The notes under the pieces are model-generated. The model had not been told where the DNA came from and ran no database searches. It saw only the letters and a program-made list of their open reading frames with translations. A DNA stretch of 64,000 nt from Deuterostichococcus epilithicus. Its lineage: Eukaryota; Chlorophyta; Trebouxiophyceae; Prasiolales; Stichococcaceae. The translations under genes and the position numbers were made by a program. The DNA lies in assembly GCA_033439295.1 (NCBI GenBank), contig JAVTLE010000011.1, positions 2,356,082 to 2,420,081 on the forward strand. The letters run 5' to 3'. How positions within the stretch are numbered: position 1 is the stretch's first letter; every line of letters begins with the position of its first letter. Below, piece by piece: positions 18 to 48,882 of this stretch.

Positions 18-1442
18 GAGTGGACACACTTCTGGCAGCGGTGCTCAACTCGTCAGAGGTGGCTACGGCGCTGGAGGAGGCTGGTATATCTGGGCGGCAG
101 CTGGCTAGTGCGGTCGAGGAGCTGCGCGGAAGCTCCGCAAAGGTACTGCCCAATCTGTGTGCCAGTTGGAACATTCCAACCGAGAATCAACTTGACTACT
201 GTCAGATCTGCATCGCGATAGCTTGCTTTGTGTGCATGATTCACACCAGCAGCATTAGGCGCGTCGGCTCGGATTGCTGCAGTGCACTTGTGCTTCGAGT
301 TTTGGGGAGAACAGGGCCTGATGCGAGGCAACATATGCTGCTTTGCAGGTCGACTCGCAGACGGGTGACGAGCAGTTCCAAGCGCTGTCCAAGTATGCCG
401 TCGACCTCACGGCAAAGGCGGCCACTCTGGACCCGGTGATCGGGCGGGACGAGGAAATTCGGCGGTGCATCCGCGTGCTGTGCCGGCGCACGAAGAACAA
501 TCCGGTGCTCATCGGCGAGCCGGGCGTCGGCAAGACTGCGATTGTGGAGGGCCTCGCGCAGCGTGTGGTGAGATATAGGGCCATCCTCCTGGCCTGTTAT
601 TCGACTTGGCTTTCTTAGCCGCCGCTTAGCTGGGCAACTTCCCTTCTCATACCACCTGGCTGCAAGGACTCCTGACACGGGTACATGAGTTGCGCGTGTC
701 CAGACCGTCCCCCCTCGTACACCCTGTAACTAAACCACAACACTTTGGTGCTAAACTGCAGGCTTTCGGCTGGCGGAGCACCATTGTGGCTCTGTAGAGC
801 AAGCGTCTGGCAGGCTTGCTCGCCCTCGCTGTCGTTTCAACTTCCACCCACCCACTGACTGGTCCTCATGTCCCGAAACAGGTGAAGGGTGACGTGCCGG
901 AGCACCTCAAACAGACGAAAGTCTTCGCGCTGGACATGGGCTCGCTCGTGGCCGGGGCCAAGTACCGTGGCGAGTTCGAGGAGCGCCTCAAGGCGGTGCT
1001 GAAGGAGGTCACCGATGCGACGGGCGAGATCATCCTGTTCATCGATGAAGTCCACCTTGTGCTAGGTGAGGCCGACCGAGCCTTGCCTCAGGAAGCATTT
1101 TGATGGCACTTGAGGCCGTCCAAGGTTTGTCCTCAGGAGCATTTGATGGCATCTGGGTTGCGGCGTGACTTGCTGCAAGCTACCAGCGATGGTACTGGTG
1201 CTGCCAGGGGGCAGCAGACCATGCCAGCAGCATCAAATGCTGGCAGCAGGTGTCAGATCCCTCCGATGCGCAGCGAGGCAAAATGCATGCTGCTTGTCGG
1301 CTGAAGTCGGCGCCGGCCTTGGTGCAGTGCAATCCGCCAAGCCTGGCACTCACTCCCAAATCCGTCAATGCTCCTCATTGCAGGTGCGGGCAAGGCCGAA
1401 GGCGCCATGGATGCCGCCAACCTGCTGAAGCCGGCGCTGGCG

Positions 1443-1477
<35 letters not shown>

Positions 1478-4400
1478 GGCGGAGTACCGCCAACACATCG
1501 AGAAGGACGCCGCCTTCGAGCGCCGCTTCCAGCAGGTGCGATGTCGTCCCTACCCGACTAGTCTGTGGACAGTGCACGCATACAACCAGCCTCAATGTGG
1601 ACTGCACGAGTACGGACTCAAATGTCATCTGCAGTGCATGCCCTGCGAGTGGTGCAGCCGTCATGCGGAGCTTGGTCTGACAAGCTCAAGGCAGCGCTCG
1701 AGGGTGCACGAGCTGTGTCAGAGCTTGGTTCTTCCCACTCGCCCAGTTGCGTCACATCCTTTCATGCTTGTCCGCAAGCAAGCTTCCAGCTTAATTTCTT
1801 CTCCGCACGAGTGCGGAAAGGGAACAGCAGCGACCCGTCCCCATCTGCACTGCTGCAGGTGATGGTGGCAGAGCCGAGCGTGAGCGACACCATCAACATC
1901 CTGCGGGGACTGTCGGAGCGCTACAGCGGCTTCCACGGCGTCCGCATCGCCGACCGGTGCGCCCGCATCTTTTGTTGCGCAGGGTTTTAGTACATGTCCT
2001 TGGTGCTGCATCGAACACACCACAGTGATGTGTGATTGCCAATGGGCACATGCCGACTGGAGCCTGGGAACGGGTGCACATCTGGTGGATGTACATCGGG
2101 CAGCCACATACACTGCCTTCCTCTTGTTCCCATGCTGACGTGAGGCACAGGAACATTCGGCAGTTTGAACCCTGTTGACATGTTTCTTTTGCCTGGTTCC
2201 TTGCTGCCCGTCAAAAGCCTCATTCTGCAGGGAGGTTGGTCTTTGCGACAGACCGGTGTGTCACTGACCGCTTGCCTGCTGGCAGGTGCAATTTTCATCG
2301 ACAGAATTTGAACAACAACGTCCGTGGTCACGCAGGGCGCTGGTCATCGCGGCTGAGCTGAGCGATCGCTACATCACCGACCGCTTCCTGCCGGACAAGG
2401 CCATCGACTTGGTGGACGAGGCCTGCTCTTCGCTGAAGGTGCAGCTGGACTCGCTGCCGGAGGACATCGACCGGCTGCAGCGCCGCGTCATCGCCCTCCA
2501 GGTGAATGCACCGGCCGATACTCTCGCTTTACCAGGCTGAAACAGCCATTTCAGACATGTCAACCTTGCGGTGCTCCTCCGCCCTGCGGTGCAGTGCGGT
2601 CCAGGCGGTGCTGTCTAGCCGCGCAAACGAAGTGGTCAGCAGGGAGGAGCGCACCTGCCCATCCCTAGCCACCAAACGGTCTGAGAACTGGCACGTCGTT
2701 GACAGTCATCGTCTCAGGTGCCGGAGGCCCCTCGTTGGGAGAAATGAGCATATCGCCAGAGACCTCCACAAGAAGGTTGCCGGGAGCTGGCAGCTCTGCA
2801 GGGCCGCGTTCAGCGGTGCCGACCATCGACATCTCTGATCAGAAGTCCCTTCCTGCTGTGCAGGTCGAGGAGGCTGCCCTCTCGAAGGAGAAGGACAAAG
2901 TGTCAGTGGAGCGGCTGGAGGAGGTGCGGCGGGAGCTGGCGGCGCTGCAGGACGAGCTGCGCCCGGTCCTGAGCCGCTACAAGGGCGAGCGGGAGCGGCT
3001 GCAGCAGCTGCAGGCGCTGCGCAAGAAGAAGGAGGAGCTGCAGGTGAGGAGTTGCTGTACAATTGCATTTCCCGTCCCTTGCAGCTACCCGCCGCAGGGA
3101 GGGCTGGCCACCCGCATTGTGGTGCTTGAAAGCATGTTGTTCTGAGACTCCCCGCACACCTTGTTGCTTGCTGGTGAGCCGCTGACGACCTGAGCAGCGG
3201 AAGCATCTCTGGATGTTCCAGCTGCTGAGTGGTGCGCTGGGCCATCGTCGTGCAGGCAAGGCAGGCAGCATGTGCAACTGGCTTGCAAAAATATTCCACT
3301 GGCAGTTGCCCAGCATCATCAAACTGCCTGAGCTGCAGCAGCAGGAGTTCACGGAGGAAACATCAGCTGAGCCTTGTGGCTGCAGCAGACATCTGCGCAG
3401 CGCTGTGACCTCCTGTAGAATCGCTCGTTGATACCTTGCAAGCAATCTGGTGTCGGTGATTTTACAATATTCGCAAGTTTCGGCAGGTGCGGCTGGAGAT
3501 GCCAGAAATCCTGTAGATTGCTCACGACAACCTTGACAGCAGCTCAGTGTCCTTGAACATGTTTCTGATCATGAACATTTCCTTTATCATGAACTTCGGC
3601 AGGTGCGGCTGGAGATGGCGGAAAACCGTTTGGACCTGGCCATGGTGGCGGACATCAAGTACGGCGCGCTGCAGGAGGTGGAGGATGCGATAAAAAAGCT
3701 GGAGCGGAAGCGCCCCGCGGACCCCATGCTGACAGAAGTCGTCACGCCTGAGGAGATCGCTAAGGTGGGGCTTCGGTTGCTGGCAACCTTCGTAGCAGAT
3801 AATATGACAGCTAACGGCAAGGGGTGCACCAGGTGCTGTGTTGCGGACCCCATGCTGACTGCGGAAGGTAGCCGCGTAGGCTGCCGATGCCTCACATCTG
3901 CTGACGCTGACACCAATGCCCTTGTCAGCATTGGGCCAGCGGGTCAGGGGCGCGAAGCCGGAGTGGGTGCTGCATTCTGACTGTGCATGGCGACGGCCTG
4001 CCGCAGTTGCCGCTGGGGCGCAGTCTCCGCAGCATCAGCAGCCTCCAGGGGGTGCTGCGGCTGTCGCTCTTCTGCCTCTGCGGCAGCACGAGCTTTGCCC
4101 TCGTGCCATGCACTGCTACCTTACTAGTGAAACATTGACTTCATTCAACCACATGTACTTCTGTCAAGAACAAGGAGGGCCGAGCCACCTGGGCTTGCCT
4201 CTACACCAGACCGAGCCATTCATGCGCACTGCTCTAGCTAGTTGTGCTCGGCTCCCATCTGTTCGGCCAGCGAGTGGCACCGCCAGTTCACAGGGCTGAA
4301 CGCTGACTGGTCAAGCAAATCAGCACCTCCACTGCTGCCGCCTCACATCGTCCTCTGGTAACCCCACACCGTGCAGGTGGTGCTCTGGACGTGCGTCTGC

Positions 4401-7400
4401 AGCAGACGTGCCGCACACCACATCAGTGTATATAATCGTTCGCTAGCGCTGGTGTGAGAAGGGCGCAGGTGGTGGCGCGCTGCACGGGCATGTGGTAACG
4501 CCTGGCTGCAGCAGGGGGAGTGCCACGTTCTACTAGGCCCGTCCCTGCTGTGTTCGCCAAATGTCCATGCTGTCTGACCCCAAAAAAACGCCGTACACAG
4601 GTGGTGGCGCGCTGGACGGGCATCCCGGTAACGCGGCTGCAGCAGACGGAGCGCGAGAAGCTGCTGGGCCTGCGGGAGGAGCTGCACAAGCGAGTGGTGG
4701 GCCAGGACAGGGCGGTGGATGTGGTTTCGGACGCGGTGCTGCGCAGCCGCGCGGGGCTGGCAGCCCGCAACCGCGGCTCCAGCTTCCTGTTCCTGGTGAG
4801 ATTGCCTTCCTGTACAATGAGTGTGCGCTGCCATTTAGCACTACAAGAGGAAGCTGCCTGGGCACTGAATCTGGCGTTCCAAGGGCATCTTCGGGACGCT
4901 AGTTGAAGTAGCTGCAGGTGTGGGTGGGAGGCATATCTGCCAGTGGGCTGTCGCTGCAGCGTGGCAAATGCGTGAACAGAGGCGCTCCACCCCTTCTAGC
5001 GATTTGTCCATAGTGCAGCTGCAGCCTTCTGAGTCCGTCCGACCTAGTAGCCACAGCGCCAGCATGCTCTCTTGCACACACAGACTTTATCCAGAAGCAG
5101 CAAGGGCAGCATGGCATTGTCAGCCGATGCTCGTGAGCGCTCCTCGATGTCGGTCGAGAGGCACAGCCAACTTTGGCACCATCGAGGCCTGCGGATGTTG
5201 GGAGTGGGATCCGACACAGCTGTGGCTGCGTGTCGGTGGCTGCTCATCCGTCCCATACGTCATTACTGCAGGACCTGACGATGGTTTCAGCGAGGTGCAA
5301 TTGAACAGGGCCTGCGGTCCTCAACGTGCTTTTGCGAATCAATATTTCCAACACAGATTGCTCCCTGTCCCTGCAGTTACTGGCAGAACGGAGCTGAGCA
5401 ATGCTCCGGCGGCGCTGCTGTGCTATCAGTGCTCCTGATAAGTGCATCGCCTGAACACTACCCGATCGCTGGCAATTCCGCAGGGCCCAACCGGCGTTGG
5501 CAAGACGGAACTTTCCAAGGCGCTGGCGGCGCTGCTGTTTGACGACGAGCGCATGATGATCCGCATTGACATGGGCGAGTACATGGAGAAGCACTCCGTG
5601 TCGCGCCTCATCGGCGCGCCGCCGGGGTATATCGGCCACGACGAGGGCGGCCAGCTGACGGAGGCTGTGCGGTGCGCTTTCATTCATCTTGGCTTGACCC
5701 CGTGCCTGTCCCTGCGTGGTCGCAGGCTGCTCGAAAGACGCGTGGCAAATTGGCACCTGTCAGGAGGATCGTTCGTGACCAAGTGACAAGCTTCTCGTTG
5801 CTCCCACTGGCAGTCAGCTGCGCAGATTGAGACTGCAGACCTCACCTGCTGTCAGCGATCTCGCTGCGCAGATTGAGGTCTGGTGCTTGGGCTGTGCAGG
5901 CTGCCGCATGCTGCATTGCATGGCCCAGCTGAAATGTGCATAGTGCGTGCGCTCTCGCCTCCATGAGCACACAGGATCCAGCATGCATGCAATGCGGATT
6001 GCGGCGGCTGCAATGCCGCCAGAGGCAGCCCCCCTCTCGTTGTGACCCACACCCGCGGTGCATGGTAGTTTCATCGACGTTCTGATTCATCGGGCCATCA
6101 GGCAGGGCTCCAAGTGCAAGTACTGGTCCGGCCACTGACTCGTTTGCTCCTTGCCTCTGCCCCGCAGGCGCCACCCGCATTCCGTCGTGCTGCTGGACGA
6201 GGTCGAGAAGGCGCACCAGGACGTGGTGCGTTCCTCAACTACACTGCAAGCGCCTGATCGTGACTTACACTGGCATGATTGCCTGATGGCCTTGCGGCGG
6301 GTACTTGCCGCCGAGCTGGTGTGGCCCTGCAGCAGCCCCCGGACTCCCTTGGATCACGGTGGCTGCTTTCTGGCAGCCTCTGTGCCGAGTGTCCCACTTG
6401 GTGTGTGCTGCAGCACGATACCAGCTGTGGCGGACGAGCTGTGGTGCACACACAGTAACGAGCCTGTCCGCTACCCACAACTGTGACGCCCAGCGTGACA
6501 AATCCCTTGTGCCCCGCAGATGAATGTACTGCTGTCGGTCATGGACGACGGGCGGCTCACAGACTCCAAGGGCCGCACCGTCAACTTCGCCAACACGCTG
6601 CTCATCATGACCTCCAACCTGGGCTCCGAGTTTCTGCTGGAGGCCGGCAACGACGAGCAGGTGAGTTCTTCGTGTTTACCTTCACAACTTTCCCGTTACC
6701 TCTGTGCGTCTAAATATGCTGTCCAACCTGGGGGCCAAACTGACACCAACAGGCAGGTGCACTCGTCCCTGCCCACTGTCTCTGAGCTATCATATCGAGC
6801 TGGTGCGATGCACACTGCACCTGGAGACTGGCGGCAATGCATCACGCGCTGGTAGCTTTCCGGCTAACAGACTGCGTTTTGACGGTTAGTTCCGCCAGTG
6901 CGCATCTGTGCATCTGCACGGTGCGCCTCTGTGCATCTGCACGGTGCACGCTGTTGAGTCGTACGGTGCGCGCCGTAGAACTGACTGTGCAGTGCAGTCG
7001 CTGCTGCCAGAGGATACCACGCCCAACTCACAATTTCTCTCCTGCTGCTGCGGGGTGCTGACCGCTGCCATGCTTGGTCGCAGCAGTCGTCTGTGCTGTG
7101 CGGCTCAATGTTGAAGCTCCAACCAAAGGCACATCAGCACAGCACGACAGCCGCCCGCACAAGCCACCCGCACAAGCCGCCCCGTCATGCAGCTGCTGTC
7201 GCCATGCCTGACAGCGTGCTGACATCCTGTGTGCAACTCGTCCCGCGCAGAGGCGGCACACGGCGGAGGCGGCGGCGCTGGCGGTGGTGCACCGCCACTT
7301 CCGCCCCGAGTTCCTGAACCGCCTGGACGAGACTGTCGTCTTCGAGGCGCTGTCGCCGCTGCAGCTGCGGGAAATTGCCCGCCTGCAGGTGCGCTGCAGC

Positions 7401-8884: not shown

Positions 8885-10459
8885 GGTTTAGAAATTGGAT
8901 GGCATGGCACGAGGAGGTGCCTGCACATCTGGGGTGACGCGCGTGGGCGTGTAGGAGGCAGATGAGGGCATGCTGGCGACGGCATAATGTGACGCTAGAG
9001 CAGGATAGAAGGATATTTTGTGTGTAGGAGATCACATTGACGGCACAATTTCCTGCAGCCCTTTGTCGCTGCCAGGGGTAGTCGCACATTAAGGACCTTT
9101 CTCGTTTGGGAGCGAGCTGCTCAGTTCCGGGTTCCAGCAGCTCGTTGGGTCGCCGTTCCTTTGCTGCTGCTAGCGGGACGGGCGATCAACTGCAGATCGA
9201 TGATGGCTGACGACCTTTGGCCTGGGTTTCCGTTCACTTTGGTCGTCGCCCTCGTGGCATCTATGAAACCTATGTAAGCGACGCTTCCATTCGCACGGAG
9301 AAAGCATGCCAGCGAGATATGCACCGCCAAGAAAGTCGTTGGTGCCGGATGCAAGAAGCTCCTGCGGTACGGCACGCCACCTCACCTAATTCCCGGAAGC
9401 ACAGCAGCTACGCGTCTCGTTCGTCTCAGCGTTGTGCTAGCAAACATGTCTCCGACATTCAGCCCTCACCGGGCGGCTCTCCTCAGGAGCTGCCTGGATC
9501 CCTGGGCTCGCTGTGTCAACCACGTGGCACCTCGGTCTGCAGCCGGTCAGCGAACGCATGCCACATGAGTCAGGTGCAATAGCTGCAGCCGCCAGCAACA
9601 GAGCAGTCCGGCTGACAGCGAAGTGCTTTGAACCAGCTGGACACACCTTGCTATTGGACATGCGTCGACCCATGCGCGTTTCAGAGCAATTCATGACGAA
9701 ACGTGATCGGATTGAGCCTGTTCGAATTTTTCACGGGCCCACGGCCGAGGCTCCTGACCGATCGCTCCCGATCGCTCGTGATGATGCTAAACAGGCCGCC
9801 TGCACCCGAAACGCATGGGCCCACGGGACATTGGGCCACGAAGCGCACGTGGCCCCTCGTTCTCCTTTGCCAGGCACAGGCCGCTCGGACGGTACTTTCT
9901 GTCGCTGTTGCACGCCTACCAGGGGTGACGGCAGCAAAGTCGCAGATTTCCTCAGGTGCGCCTGCGGTTCTGCCTAAGCATCGCGAACTGCACATTGGCT
10001 GTCGCCTGCCAAGACTCGCAAGATTTCGGTCTCAGGCGGGTCTCGCCTCGTCAGCAGCACCTCTTCTCTTTCGAGCGCAGTCAAGCGAACCAAAGCGCAT
10101 TGTGTCACGCCTGCGCAGGGGCGTGTCGTTTGCTCATAGGAAGTGGCTGGCGCAGCAGGAAGGCGAGCAGCTCGGCAACAAGTGCGGGTACAGGTGTGGA
10201 CCTTTGGCGCGCGCCGCTCACTTGCAATCGTCGGTGAGCACGCCCCTCTGTCTGCTGAGCCATGTCGCAGCGCGCATAATCTGCTGTCGCCGATGTCTAG
10301 TCAGCAGCCAGCCAGCGAGACGACGCGACGCGATGTTGCGTCACTCCAACTATCTCCGCTTGCCCTCGCCAGTCGATTCAGTCGAGCGTTTGCACGCAGG
10401 TCGGTCGGGACGCGACCGGAGGGTAGTCGCTCGCGCAGGCACAGGCCGTTCGCGTCTTG
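8885..10459. other. intergenic region, HSP101 to Rh gene
   Basis: About 1.6 kb with no gene I can support. It should hold the HSP101 3' end and the Rh promoter. I saw no clear TATA box or poly(A) signal. A 257-codon open frame at 9703-10476 looks like chance opening in GC-rich DNA. Confidence 0.5.
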
Positions 10460-17746: not shown

Positions 17747-20700
17747 CTATCTCGTGGCCAGGTCCCTCAACAGAAAGGCCCGGCGCAGTGACTGTCGTGC
17801 AGGGCATGCAGGCTACAGCCAGGACGGGGAGCTGCCGGCATCTCACCTCAAACTCGGTGGCCCACTCGGCAGTGAGCCCGGGACAGCCCCGTGCGTACCA
17901 GTCCGGCACATGCGACGCCTCCGCAGCCGCCGCCAGCAGCCCGGCGCCCGTCACGTCGCGGCAGCATGCCAGGCTCACGTAAAGCAGGTGGCTGCAGCGG
18001 GCTCCGGCGGCAAGCCCCTCGCCAGTGAAGCCCAGGCAGTGGTCCAGCTGCGTTGAGGTGCAAAAGACGACGCAACTGAGGTTGAGGAGATGCAAGAAGA
18101 TACTCGCCATGCCTTGGCCTGCTCATCATGCCTCGACCTGCACGCGCTGTCATCGTAACAATTCCTCCTCCTGAAATCTCTGGAGCAGGCGGCGGCAGCG
18201 GTTGTAGACCCTCCGGTTCCGTCTGGCCATCGGCCCCCGCTGTGATACAGATGAGATGTCGCCGCGACATGTGTGATCAAGCCTTCTGAGAGGCGTGCGC
18301 TGGGGGGTGCCGCTTGCGGCAGGTACTATGTCATCACACACGACATGATTCATAAGCATAACACACACGCACACATGCCTACCCCACAGGCATTGCCAAA
18401 GAAGATGCCTGCATGTGGTCAGGCCTGCTGAGAGGCATGCGCTGGGTTATTTGCGCCGCTCGCGACAAAAACTGTGTCACCACACACGACATCTTCCATA
18501 AGCATAAAAAGCACAGACAAACACCTCACACACATCCACAAAGGAGATGCCTGCCGCGCGCGCACCCGCAGGTACTGAAGAGCCGGCAGCACTGCCAGCC
18601 CGGCTGCCAGGTCGCCGTCCGAGATGAGCGCGTGGGTCAGCTCCAGCTCCCGTAGTGCGCTGTGTCCGCTGCCACCGCTGCTGCCGCTGCCGAGCAGCGC
18701 CAGACGCAGGCCGGTGACGGCGCCGGTCTCGCCGCCGCCGCCGCTGCTGCCCGCGGCGTCGATCTGAAGGCCGCTGCCGCTGGCTCCGCCGAGGACGAGC
18801 CTCGTGATCGACGAGAACCTGCACAGAACAGCACCAAGCTCCGCCACTGCTGCAACTCCGCAAGGCCCAGCAGAGCTGGTGCTGCGTGATGTCAGCCCTG
18901 GCTATTAAGAAAACCCTCGCCAAGGCTGCTGACAGGCAGTGCCCCAGGTGCAGCATACATTCTGGATGCACCTGCACTTCTACCGCAGCACAGCATTCAC
19001 CTCGTAGCAAACTCTCGTGGTGGCCTTTAATTTCTTGTCGGGGCGACCCACCTGGACAGGCTCATCAGGAGACCGTTGGCGAGTTGACGCAGGCCGCTGG
19101 TGGCGCCGGTCTCGCTGCTGCCGCCACCGCTGCTCGCGGCATCGATCTCGAGGCCGCTGCCGCTGGCTCCGCCGAGGACGAGCCTCGTGACCGACGAGAA
19201 CCTGCACAGGACAGCACCAGGCTCCGCCACTGCTGCAAGTCCGCAAGGCCCAGCAGAGGTGGTACTGTGCGATGCCAGCCCCGGCTGTTCAAACCGCCCT
19301 CGCCCAAGGCTGCCGACAGGCAGTGCCCCAAGTCCAGCATACATGTTGATGCACCTGCGATTCGACCGCAGCACAGGACAATTTGTGGCAAACTCCCGTG
19401 GTGGCCTTGTCAGGGCGACCCGCCTGGACAGCCTTAGCAGGAGACAGTTGGTGAGTTGCATGCCGCGCAGCGAGACCTCGCGCGGCCGCATGCCCGCCGC
19501 CGCTGCCAGCAGCCCGAGTCCAGTGGCGCCGGCCGCCGTCAAGTCAAGCGCCCGCCGCCGCCCGCCGCCGGTGAGCAGGACGCCCGCCGCCGGAGGGGGC
19601 ACCGACAGGCTGGACAGCCGCCGCAGGGCAGTCAGGTGGGCCAGCCCAGCGTCCGTGATGCGGTCGGAGCAGTTGAGCTGCAGCAGCTGCAGCGCCGTCA
19701 GGCTGGCGGCGACGGCTGCCAGGCCGCGGTCTGAGACCCTGCGGCTCTCCGGAGCGGCGTACCTGCCCTCCCAGGGCAGCCCATTCCAGGGAACCGACAG
19801 CTCCAGGGCTGTGAGGTGTTTCGCGCCGCCCAGCGCCGCCATGTCTTCATCGGTCACCTGCGCAGCGGCAGAGTTGCAGGCCTGAAAGATTGCCTCAGTC
19901 CCCTGCGTCTGTGCACCGGGTCTGTGCCATCACGACTTGGGCCATTGCAGTAGGCGCCAATATCCAGCCCACATGGCGATGGATCCTGAAATCGAGGCCT
20001 AGCAGACACGGTCTTAGCGATGTAATTGATACAGACATGGCCTGACGAGCCCCAGCATGCTTTCGACAGGGACAGGCAGCGCCGGCTTGCAATTTGCACC
20101 GGGCAGCGGCAGATTGCGGGCATGGGGACCCCGGCAACACCGCAAGCCCCCACAGCCTGCCTGACAGGCATGCATCCCTGCCCTGGGAGCAGCTCGTGAG
20201 CGAGACTCACCGCGCTGGGTGCACCCGAAAATTCGAAACTGCGCAGCGACACAGGGGCGCCTGCCAGCCCCCGCAGCCCGCAGGACATAAGGTAGCGACC
20301 CGACAGCGAGATGTGCTCGACCTGGTGCAGCGCCGCCAGTAAGCGCAACATCTGCACCGCAGGGCACCAGCACAAGTCGCGTTGGCATGGCAACATCCAC
20401 ACATGAGGAAGCTCAGTCACGCTGTCATGGTCGGCAGCGCAGCTGGCAGGCGCTCCTCGTCTGAGCTTTCTGAGGAGGCTGGCGCGGCTGTCACGGCGGC
20501 GGCGGCGGCAGCCAAACACTGCACAGACCGGCAGAGAAGGCACCATGTGAAGCACAGGAATGAAGGGTACTGCTTCGGCCGGTGTTTGGAATTCCAAGGC
20601 ACAGATGCAGCACGTCTGGGACAGGAGCAGGATGGAAGCCGAACCTGCGGCTCGTTCCCATGCTCGCTATCAATTCTGAGCTGCCGCAGCCGCGGCGCGA

Positions 20701-34038: not shown

Positions 34039-40734
<6,696 letters not shown>

Positions 40735-44421: not shown

Positions 44422-47400
44422 ATGGTGAAGGAGACTGAGTACTACGATGCGCTGGGCGTGGCGCCGGACGCCGGCCCTGCGGCAATTAAGAAGGCGTACT
44501 ACACCCAGGCCCGCAAGGTGCGACGCAATGATGCTTCAGCACTCTGTAGGTGTGCGCGGCACCAGCAGGGATGTGGCTCCCTGGCAGCAGGAGGTCCATC
44601 CATGTGCAGTATGCAGGTGCCAGGTGAGGGAGTAGCATGGTGACCAAGTCGTGCACCACACTAGCCGCATTCTGAGCGCCTGGCGTCTAGCAACCTGCCA
44701 GCGTGTGAGGTCGGGTGATGCTTGTTGGGTTTGTGAGTGGGCAGGGGTGGGTGGGGGAGTATGTGGTGGGGGGTGCAGGGTCTTTCACCTGCTCTTGATA
44801 AATTTTGGAAAACGCTTGCTGAGCAGCACTGATCCTTTCGTGAGGTCCTCTGCATTTCCGGTCGCTCTCGAGCCGAGTTATGGGTTGCTGTCCGGCGGCC
44901 CCAGGTGCATGCTGGATTGCAGCCGAGACGCGATGCAGACCACTGCAGTGCACACAGCCGACTTCTTGCGTCCTCATAGTGAACTGTGGGCTGTCACGAA
45001 TTTCCACAGGTGCACCCGGACAAGAATCCGAACAACCCGCAGGCGGCCGCCGAGTTCCAGGCCCTGGGTGAAGCCTACCAGGTCCTCAGCGACCCAGCCC
45101 AGCGCTCGGAGTGCGTCCCAGCCTGCGGCAGTCATGCGGCAGTCTGCATTTGCTGTCCTGGAAAACGCTTAGGTGCTGGCACTGGTGACCACGTCGGCTG
45201 CGTGCCGACCCAAGTGCGGCCGACTGGGAGCATGTGTTGGTTGCTGCATACCGACGCTGACTGCATACCGACACTGGTCCATTCCGACACAAGGCATGCA
45301 GCCGCCCTGTCCTTGCTGCTAATCCCAGTCGCGGCCTGGCGCTTGTGGTTGTGGCCCGCCCAGTTGAGTCGCTGCGGCACCTGTGCTAGCCGCCAAGCAG
45401 TCAGGACAGTACCCCTCGACAAATCCACTTCGAAACCATCCAAGTATGCAGGAAAGGGTGCACTTCGTCTGACTGTCGCACTGACCTGCAGGTACGACCG
45501 CCACGGCAAGCAGGCGGTGCTGGATTCTGCTGGCGCCGTCGATCCTGCCACCGTCTTCGGCATGGCCTTCGGCTCCGACGTGTTTGAGGAGTATGTCGGA
45601 CAGCTGGCGCTGGCAACACTGGCGCAGCTGGGCTACGAGGGCGGCGGAGACCCAAGCCGCGACGCCCAGTTCCATGCCAAGCTGCAGGGCCTGCAGCAGG
45701 TGGGTCCTCTTGGGAGCGATGTTGAGTGACAGTAAGGCAGGTGACCGTAGTAGCGCAGCTGGCAGAGGCGGCATGAACCGCGCAGCTCCACGCCAAGCTG
45801 CATGGCGTGCGGCAGCTGGGCTGCAGTGCCAGAACGGCGTGTGTTGGCCCAGCCGAGGGTGCATGCTCAGGCAACGGGGATGACGGTAGGTTGACCCCCT
45901 GCATCTCAGCCTATCCTTGTAACCTTGCAACAGGAAACCCCAACCCCAACTGCAGGACCGGGTTGCAAGCTGGGAAGACGACGCACTCTACTTGTGGCTG
46001 CAGCGCTGGGTGAACAGTGAACATAGCCAACCGTGCTGACTTTAGGGTTTTGAACCCTAAAGCTAACCCTCCTTACATGGCTGTAGGAGCGCGTCGCCAA
46101 GCTGGAGGCGGCGCTGAAGGCACGGCTGCAGCGCTACGTGGACGGCGACAAGGAGGGCTTCAAGGCGTGGGCGGTGTCCGAGGCGGAGGGCCTCTCTGGC
46201 GCCGCCTTTGGCGAGGCCATGCTGCACACCATCGGGTGAGAGGAACAGAAACAAGCAACGTCACAGCACAGCCAGCAGTTGAGCGGCTTTCACGACCAGG
46301 CGCTTATTTCGGTCGTTGGCTGGCTGATCAGGCCACATCAGAGACCTCTAGGCCGTGGGCTCTCTGGTAGTCGCCGCCCTCCAGCGAGGCTGTGCTGCGC
46401 ACGATCAGATGAGAAGCTGCCAGAAAGTGGATTGTCATCTTCCACTCTGGGCGCTCGTGTGAGCATGCGATCGGTGGCAAAGTGGACTCAGTGTCAGCTG
46501 CGGGGCTCTGTCGGGCGCCGCCTTCCACGAGTCCATGCTGCACACCATCAATCGCGCCGCTGGTCCCCCTAGCGCATGCATGTGGCAATCGTGTTCCCAC
46601 TGATGCGACAATCTCCCTGTGGCGCTCGGATCTGGCAGGCAGAGCGGCAGCCTATGTGGGTTGCAGGGGGGCTGAGCAGCACCACGGTCGATGGGGCAGC
46701 CGTCGGCGAGCAGCCCTGCCGCCTGCTCCGTCAGTGTGACCGCAGCCATGCGCCACCCGCAGGCTTGGTGTGCCACCATAGGGCCTGCTCGTGTTTTTTA
46801 TAAGCAGTGAATCCCGTAATTCACAGGTACGTCTATGAGCGGCGGGGTCGCATGTACGCGGGCAAGGGCCCAAGCATGGTGGTGGAATGGATGCGCGCCA
46901 AGGGGCACGGCATCAAGAGCCAGGTCACCGCCGCGTCTGGCGCCGCCGACATCATGATCATGCAGGCCAACGCCAAGAAGCAGTTCCAGGCGCGTAGTTC
47001 ACCTGAAAAATGCATCGAAGAACAACTGCTGCGCAGTAGCAAGCGGCAGCCTCCATCCCTTCACTGGTGTGTTGTGCGTCGTCAACAATGGTCAATACAG
47101 CAGTCTAGCATACAAGCTGGAAAGCGGTGTGCAAAGAACCAACTCGCATCTTGCACTGCCAGAGTTCAAGGGCTGCAGAGAGGCACAGGCGCCAGAGGCT
47201 GTCCTTGCACCGGCACTGTCGTCCGTTACCTTCTGCAGCCTCTGGACGCAGGGCCTGTTTGCATGCACACGGGCTCACAAGGTGCACCATTGCTGAGGTC
47301 ACGCATTGTCAAGTAGCGACACCAGCACCAAGTGTACTGTGCCCCTGGTCCACCAGTTTACTGGGAATGATGAACCAGTCTGCCGCGACTATGACATTGC

Positions 47401-48882
47401 GCCGATAGTACCGCCTGCACCTAGATGCTGAAACCATTGGTGTGACATCTGCGCAGCCGCAACTGCGTCACGGCAGCGAGCAGACAATGATGCGGTTGCT
47501 GTTGGTCCAATGTGCCGAGATGAGATGCCTCACGTGAAGACTACCTGCCCCATGCGGAGCTAGGTCACGAGGAACCGAGCAGGTGGCCGCGCAGCACCTC
47601 ATGGACCAATCTCACACACCACAAACACAATTTTCACATTATGGAGCCCACTGCTTTCGCGCTCAATGCAGGTCACGGGCAACGAGCAGGCGGCCGCGCA
47701 GTACCTCATGGACCAGTCCGCGGCGATGATGGAGTCGCTGTGGAAGATCAATGTGGTGGACATCGAAAACACGCTGGAGGCGGTTGTGGACCGTGTGTGC
47801 CACGAGCCGGGCGCGAAAGCCGGCGTGCTGAAGGCGAGGGCCGCGGGCCTCAAGTCCATGGGTGTCATCTTCCAGGTGCGTTTCTCCGGCGGCTGCGGCG
47901 CAAGGTTCACAGGGCTTCAGTTTCAGTGGCGCGGGTGTGGCGCGGTCCTGAAACTGAAGGCCGCGGCCTTCGAGCCCATTGGCTTCATTTCTCGGAGGGT
48001 GCACGTACCCATAGCATTCGTACTTCAGTATATGCTGAGGCGTGTATGCGCAGTGCCAATCGCCGAGCGTCATGTCACGGGTTTGCCCAGCAGCTTCTGA
48101 CGACGGGCGCCCACCTCGTTCCCTGAAGACAGGTCCCCCACCTCGTTCTACAAGAGGCTCGATTCTCTGTCTCACATTCATCCTCCGCCGCTGCAGGCTG
48201 CCAAGCCCAAGTACCAGCGCGCCAACAGCCTCCGGGTGCCAAAGGGTGAGCCCTGAGCCCTGAACCCTAAGGCTGCTTCAAAAGTGGCATTGACTGTCCT
48301 CCGCGGTGACTCTGGATTCCGGAGGCGGGTCGTTGTCACAGGCCCCAGGGCACGCTAGCGGCCCATGGGTACAGCTGCTGCCGGCACACCCACTTGAAGG
48401 CAGCGCTGTCAGATGCAAAGCAGGGCTCTGCCGTGCACCGCAGCCGCACATGCTTGCGGCCCATGCTGCACTGCGCACAGCCCTCAAGACGCGCCGTGTG
48501 TGTCATGACCGTCTGCATGCCTGGCTTTCACGCGGTAGAGCGGCGGCCCAGTCGCAAGCTCCTCCACAGGCAGTCCGCACCCTGAGCCGGCCGGCAATGC
48601 AACACCGGCCTGCGGCCTCTGTTCTCCCAACGAGCATGTCACCGCCCTCTGCCACAGATGCGAAGGCGTCGCACTGAAGCACCCCCGATGGCGCCCCCGC
48701 GCAGGCGGCGCCTTCGGCATCCACGCTGCCGGCGGCTCCGCCAGCGCGCCTGCATCGATGCACGCCGGCGGCGCCTGGGCGGCGCAGCCGCCGTTCCAGG
48801 GTGCGAGCAGCGGCCACGGCTACGCGCCGCCTCCACACCAGCGGCAGGGCTCTGGCGCCGGCAGCGGCCACGGCTACATGCC

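What the first reader, a model, noticed from the sequence alone, without database searches (positions are those of the whole stretch)
3479..5427. Exon edges of HSP101 are echoed outward into the flanking introns
At least three exon starts (3603, 4601, 5484) have decayed copies, acceptor AG included, 110-140 bp upstream in the preceding intron. A downstream echo of sequence near 3714-3745 lies at 3838-3866. Copies of starts lie upstream and copies of ends lie downstream. That is the reverse of what intron birth by tandem duplication of an AGGT site predicts, which would place the downstream exon's start just after the donor. It suggests introns that grow by repeated duplication of their own splice junctions, leaving decoy splice sites.
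Basis: partly seen in the sequence, partly recalled or inferred. Interest (0 to 1): 0.85.

Follow-up and report, generated by a model that had tools for sequence, protein, structure and literature searches.

The report
Introns grown by local tandem duplications
In this eukaryotic genome, stretches of about 80 to 170 bases were often copied side by side, and where a copy crossed the edge of an exon it left a fading duplicate of that edge, sometimes with its splice site, stranded inside the neighbouring intron.

Summary
The echoes are real: all four named ones are present, part of a wider pattern. In 252 kb of this genome, exon edges match their own neighbouring intron in 45 of 792 tests at score 18 or more, against 1.0 expected from shuffled pairs; 45 of 396 introns carry an echo at score 16 or more. 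At score 18, starts lie in the preceding intron (22 of 232), not the following (0 of 227); ends in the following (16 of 227), not the preceding (0 of 232). 37 of 47 offsets are 80-175 bp, median 124.

Best explanation: local tandem duplication across splice junctions. The exon-derived half stays recognisable because selection holds the real exon; the intronic half drifts in both copies. Direction is then forced by geometry. One young array keeps the whole unit (149/162 identical). In most echoes the intronic half is not visible (31 of 36 not significant). Simulated young duplications predict otherwise; old ones, tried afterwards, fit most measures but not all. It is not confined to splice junctions, on few clear cases. 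Use of the decoy sites is untested.

The parts
3479..3511 (+). Echo of the start of exon 3603-3764, CAG included, offset 116
   Evidence: 30/33 identical in the ungapped scan; banded alignment 3375-3511 / 3488-3627, 90/133
3603..3764 (+). HSP101/ClpB exon whose start and inner end are echoed
   Evidence: unbroken ClpB1 frame; found again by the gene finder
3717..3733 (+). Source of the downstream echo, 31 bases inside the exon end
   Evidence: 17/17 match at 3843-3859, offset 126
3843..3859 (+). Downstream echo in the following intron, no donor copied
4466..4539 (+). Echo of the start of exon 4601-4795, CAG included, offset 132
   Evidence: 56/69 identical over the exon part 4469-4539; 25/26 over the first 26 bases
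4601..4795 (+). HSP101/ClpB exon, real copy
5381..5421 (+). Echo of exon 5484-5671 from its 15th base, offset 117; a CAG lies at 5374-5376
   Evidence: 32/41 identical; CAG read
5484..5671 (+). HSP101/ClpB exon, real copy
1276..1317 (+). Weaker echo of exon 1384-1535, offset 124
   Evidence: 30/42 identical, score 18
2781..2802 (+). Echo of 2930-2951 inside exon 2864-3043, offset 149
   Evidence: ungapped scan; not among the 47
18272..18554 (.). Intron-only tandem duplication, two copies about 142 bases apart, whole unit preserved
   Evidence: 107/137 identical; lies between predicted minus-strand exons
47564..47611 (+). Echo of the start of predicted exon 47672-47875, AG included, offset 108
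   Evidence: 42/47 identical; AG shown
45779..45815 (+). Echo of the end of predicted exon 45492-45699 in the following intron, offset 116
   Evidence: 31/37 identical

Best explanation
Local tandem duplications with a unit of roughly 80-175 bp struck this genome at many places, mostly long ago. Where the unit crossed an acceptor the result is intron-[i e][i e]-exon; where it crossed a donor, exon-[e i][e i]-intron. Splicing settled on the copy next to the exon, so the protein did not change and the intron grew by one unit. The spare exon edge, with its AG or GT, is left in the intron and decays as non-coding DNA. The half derived from the exon stays recognisable because its partner is held by selection, whereas the intronic half drifts in both copies and fades first. 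Shown: the echoes, their excess, direction, size class, direct orientation, non-coding decay, repeated rounds and one young full-unit array. Inferred: which splice site is used, the old age of most copies, and that the units arose by repair of staggered breaks or a replication error.
For: Same-strand local repeats peak at offsets 100-159 (35 of the 73 hits kept from 276 after a low-complexity filter; one hit in all beyond 400), with no such peak for inverted repeats (8 kept of 29, two of them at 120-139). Excess over shuffled pairs and directional asymmetry. Offsets are not intron lengths (1 of 47 within 15 bp); 37 of 47 lie at 80-175, median 124, and their remainders mod 3 are even (13/11/13). 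Mismatch by codon position is 0.17/0.20/0.24 and 24 of 47 echoes carry a frame-shifting gap, so the echo drifts freely. The young array L026 9175-9336 / 9307-9469 holds intronic and exonic halves alike, 149/162. Intron-side continuation exceeds chance (6 of 31 at p<=0.05, 3 at p<=0.01; 8 of 46 at p<=0.05), while continuation as spliced exon-exon does not (1 of 31). A simulation with divergence 0.25-0.5 per copy gives mean identity 0.806, 27% at or above 0.84 and codon mismatch 0.19/0.19/0.24, close to the observed 0.81, 27% and 0.17/0.20/0.24.
Against: Intronic-half homology is weak: 5 of 36 echoes at p<=0.05, and 1 of 10 of those at or above 0.84 identity, while simulations with a broad, younger age range predict about 17-22 of 36 (my sums over the bins). 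The old-age setting that fits best was one of five tried after those failures; it predicts 22% (25% for the similar ones) against the observed 14% and 10%, has more gaps per base (0.035 against 0.018), and yields too few long, similar echoes (id >=0.88 over >=40 bases: 1.9% against 4 of 37). Uneven rates raise that last figure to 13% but spoil the others (mean identity 0.834, 46% at or above 0.84, intronic half visible in 32%). So either the copies are mostly old with uneven rates, or some copies never included the intron side.
Confidence: 0.72

Rival explanations
1. Exon-limited local copying: short blocks of exon (17-98 bases) were copied to a point about 115 bases away without the neighbouring intron, for example by template switching or repair copied from RNA.
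For: In echoes at or above 0.84 identity the match usually stops within a few bases of the splice junction; intron-side signal is below most simulated expectations.
Against: Echoes do not continue into the neighbouring exon as a spliced template would (1 of 31). A subset clearly continues into the intron (L026, L028, L018). The offset is similar for acceptors and donors, which a tandem unit explains simply.
Confidence: 0.14
2. The echoes are real alternative exons (tandem exon duplication with mutually exclusive splicing).
For: AG is kept in 11 of 16 edge-anchored upstream echoes, and GT in 6 of 15 downstream ones.
Against: 24 of 47 echoes have frame-shifting gaps; mismatches are nearly even over codon positions; most copy only part of an exon; AG retention (0.69) is near what simulated neutral decay gives (0.55-0.63 at identity 0.78-0.90).
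Confidence: 0.06
3. Intron birth by tandem duplication of an exonic AGGT segment.
For: Same kind of event; one candidate intron (L015 4557-4657, 101 bases, offset 115) has this geometry.
Against: 46 of 47 echoes do not have an offset near the intron length; 45 of 47 lie in introns of 217-836 bases.
Confidence: 0.03
4. A mobile intron family (introner) or other repeat carries the pattern.
For: None found.
Against: A whole-genome search with window 3479-5427 gives two other matches, both inside the coding part shared with ClpB paralogues; that search skips very common words, and other introns were not searched. Each echo is a copy of its own neighbouring exon.
Confidence: 0.02
5. Chance or low-complexity similarity.
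For: At lower scores the excess shrinks (for starts at score 10, 186 against 147).
Against: 45 of 792 against 1.0 (shuffled), 3 (reverse complement), 2.0 (other introns of the same gene) at score 18 or more.
Confidence: 0.01

Closest known systems
Small tandem duplications from error-prone break repair (CST-Pol alpha-primase fill-in plus end-joining; PMC8355091, passages seen)
   Same: Direct, adjacent, small duplications without a mobile element
   Different: That paper speaks of short insertions under 100 bp in human DNA and studies new mutations; here the unit is mainly 80-175 bp, apparently old, and seen as intron growth across splice junctions. The enzymes are not tested here.
Intron gain by tandem genomic duplication of an AGGT segment (review PMC3443670, passages seen; PMC4974935, search listing with start of abstract only)
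   Same: Tandem duplication supplies the extra splice sites
   Different: That creates a new intron inside an exon, made of the sequence between the two AGGT copies. Here existing introns are lengthened and the spare site lies inside the intron.
Direct repeats near intron borders (Rogers and Bendich 2025, PMC11782384, abstract and passages seen)
   Same: Repeats at exon-intron borders
   Different: Those are 4-30 bp repeats pairing the two ends of an intron; here mostly longer copies of a single exon edge lie within one adjacent intron.
Tandem exon duplication and mutually exclusive exons (recalled, no call)
   Same: A second copy of exon sequence in a neighbouring intron
   Different: Echoes are mostly partial, about half are frame-broken, and they decay like non-coding DNA.

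Membership tests
Local tandem duplication | Direct orientation, copies on the same strand | tested here: met
   Peak for direct repeats, none for inverted
Local tandem duplication | Homology over the whole unit, not only the exon half | tested here: inconclusive
   Met in a young array and several others; not visible in most echoes (5 of 36 at p<=0.05); simulated old age accounts for much of the loss
Local tandem duplication | Independent of gene structure (also outside exons) | tested here: met
   Among 37 local pairs, 7 are intron-intron and 1 intergenic (only windows passing a complexity filter); at least 4 of the 7 are copies of exon-derived echoes (L015 5775, L024 4387, L028 3683, window 46357), so the clear cases are few: window 18272, L015 4904, L022 9039, perhaps window 60272
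Small tandem duplication by CST-Pol alpha fill-in | Dependence on Pol alpha-primase, CST, end-joining | not testable with these tools
   Needs mutants
Intron gain by tandem genomic duplication | Offset between copies close to intron length; copies flank a new intron | tested here: not met
   1 of 47 echoes within 15 bp of intron length
Introner / mobile intron family | The same element at many places in the genome | tested here: not met
   Window 3479-5427 matches elsewhere only in coding sequence; tested for this stretch alone
Mutually exclusive exons | Both copies intact coding exons | tested here: not met
   24 of 47 with frame-shifting gaps, nearly even codon-position mismatch
Decoy splice sites in use | RNA evidence of use | not testable with these tools
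   No transcript data held

The most novel reading that the evidence does not exclude
Much of the intron DNA of this genome was built by a past wave of tandem duplications of nearly one size, about 115-125 bp. Visible echoes are only the tip: if 13-29% of junction-crossing events remain detectable (two settings, upstream echoes only), the 37 seen at offsets 80-175 would mean roughly 130-280 in 396 introns, that is, introns lengthened unit by unit, each step leaving a decoy splice site.
Probability: 0.33. Interest if true: 0.75.

Novelty: new variant of a known kind. Interest (0 to 1): 0.56.

Why it matters
How introns come to be long is usually put down to transposons and slippage (recalled, no call). 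Here a plain mutational process with a preferred unit size lengthens introns across their own splice sites, with visible traces in about one intron in nine of those tested, and supplies spare splice sites that could seed alternative splicing. The direction rule (starts upstream, ends downstream) gives a simple genome-wide test for the process in any annotated genome. The size class asks for a mechanism.

Tried and rejected
Simulations with young or broad ages seemed to rule out junction-spanning duplication (three settings, two of three). With old ages (divergence 0.3-0.6, 0.25-0.5) the same model fits most measures; that setting was chosen after the failures, one of five. I report both. RNA-templated copying: tested by asking whether echoes continue into the neighbouring exon; an unanchored count looked positive (8 against 1.1) but so did continuation into the intron (9 against 0.55 at acceptors, 5 against 0.6 at donors), and with anchored controls only the intron side stayed above chance. 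Lost intronic halves displaced further along the intron: not found (3 of 45 at p<=0.05). Unit wholly inside the exon: the rest of the unit on the exon side shows no homology (2 of 46 at p<=0.05). The first two runs of my gene finder over-called exons or ignored strand and were replaced. One search used gap costs that let alignments run into unrelated sequence. One search aligned sequences to themselves by mistake and was replaced. One search crashed and was repeated. Eight paper searches listed no paper that, by title and the start of its abstract, describes exon-edge echoes from junction-spanning duplications; the library holds open-licence papers only, and four papers were opened, none in full.
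Full report
What was checked. The window is 64 kb of a 46.8 Mb genome in 21 contigs. Its first gene is HSP101/ClpB: 13 exons set by hand give an unbroken frame, and the product of the first twelve matches ClpB1 over all 627 residues (PDB 9ip0, E 4.2e-268).

The four named echoes exist. Offsets are 116, 126, 132 and 117. Two keep the acceptor CAG in register. The third has a CAG 10 bases out of register. The downstream echo is an exact 17-base copy that stops 31 bases before the exon end, so it carries no donor. The HSP101 gene has at least two more, weaker ones.

The pattern is general. I added 17 stretches of 10 kb, one from each of 17 contigs and all at the same contig coordinate, and the two ClpB paralogue loci (188 kb). 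A scan for ungapped local repeats kept 73 of 276 hits after a low-complexity filter; 35 of the 73 lie at offsets 100-159, and one beyond 400. Inverted repeats show no such peak (8 of 29 kept, two of them at 120-139). I wrote a gene finder, trained first on HSP101, so that its return of all 13 hand-set exons is not an independent test. Of 17 models printed I gave five to Pfam, and all five carry clear domains (XAP5, glycosyl hydrolase 1, protein kinase, AAA_2, E1_dh). It has faults: it fuses genes and appears to swallow an echo as an exon in the XAP5 model on L018 and in L026, which hides some echoes.

With these models, 396 introns were tested against the last 80 bases of the exon before and the first 80 of the exon after. 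At score 18 or more there are 23 starts and 22 ends, against 0.62 and 0.38 from shuffled pairs, and 1 and 2 for reverse complements. Other introns of the same gene give 2.0 per 792 tests. The 47 echoes at score 16 or more fall in 45 introns; 13 lie in the window (5 of them in HSP101) and 34 in 13 of the 19 added loci. 37 have offsets of 80-175, median 124; the other 10 lie at 208-317, of which one at least is two steps (L024: 221 = 115 + 106).

Direction. For exons of 120 bases or more, counting score 18 or more: start in preceding intron 22 of 232, start in following 0 of 227, end in following 16 of 227, end in preceding 0 of 232 (at score 16 the counts are 22, 1, 19, 0). It also separates the pattern from intron birth: only 1 of 47 echoes has an offset near the intron length.

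State of the copies. Mismatches by codon position are 0.17, 0.20, 0.24; 24 of 47 have frame-shifting gaps and 4 have in-frame stops. AG is kept in 11 of 16 edge-anchored upstream echoes and GT in 6 of 15 downstream ones. The echoes therefore look like non-coding relics, not spare exons.

Whole unit or exon only. This was the hardest point. The best-preserved array, L026 9175-9336 / 9307-9469, is a whole unit of about 132 bases with both halves present (149/162; sequence). Two duplications inside introns (window 18272-18554; L015 4904-5074) also show a whole unit. In most echoes, however, the match seems to stop at the junction: with offsets up to 175, only 5 of 36 show the intronic half at p<=0.05; a different scoring over all 46 testable echoes gave 8. 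Simulations with young or broad ages predicted 17-22 of 36 (my sums over the identity bins). With older ages the intronic half, which drifts in both copies, is expected to vanish: divergence 0.25-0.5 gives 22%, with mean identity, identity spread and codon pattern as observed. That setting was one of five in that call, tried after the failures. It gives more gaps than the data and too few long, similar echoes; allowing uneven rates mends the last point and spoils others. A spliced-template origin is not supported (1 of 31 continue into the next exon), while continuation into the intron exceeds chance (6 of 31).

Amount. 45 of 396 introns (11%) carry a visible echo. If the simulated detection rates of 13-29% hold (586 of 4440 and 1282 of 4431; upstream echoes only, rough), junction-crossing events would number about 130-280 in these introns. 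This is inference.

Mechanism. Small tandem duplications are known products of repair of breaks with complementary overhangs (PMC8355091, passages seen). The unit size here is larger than the under-100-bp class that paper names. Whether staggered breaks, flap errors or nucleosome-scale spacing set the size is open.

Limits. 252 kb is about 0.5% of the genome; two of the 19 added loci were chosen as paralogues and the other 17 share one contig coordinate; no relative, no RNA data and no second annotated genome were available for comparison.

Noticed in passing
L015:4438-4803: The 101-base intron 4557-4657 begins with a copy of the following exon (offset 115): a candidate for intron birth by the same kind of duplication. 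The frame history was not resolved.
   Followed up: partly
L026:9140-9469: Youngest array seen: a unit of about 132 bases in two copies 149/162 identical plus an older third one; the gene finder appears to have taken one echo as an exon.
   Followed up: partly
L024:4271-4527 and L015:5618-5952: Triple echoes of one exon end, steps of 115 and 106 bases, and of 151 and about 114 bases.
   Followed up: partly
L018:4209-4433: In the XAP5 gene model a copy at offset 116 (78/101 identical) seems to have been read as an extra exon; such echoes can mislead gene annotation.
   Followed up: partly
window 37149-37458: Three copies of one stretch (about 37149, 37296, 37413) at a minus-strand predicted exon; by eye the exon end may use a GC donor.
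   Followed up: no
window 3714-3734 and 3923-3943: Inverted pair, 86% complementary over 21 bases, near the exon end that is also directly echoed; inverted repeats show no general excess.
   Followed up: partly
window 1384 and L032:2590: What appears to be the same intron in HSP101 and a ClpB paralogue carries an upstream echo in each (offsets 124 and 131); whether these are independent events was not tested.
   Followed up: no
upstream echoes: All 16 edge-anchored upstream echoes have a G in the base before the exon start, while 5 of 16 lack the AG.
   Followed up: no
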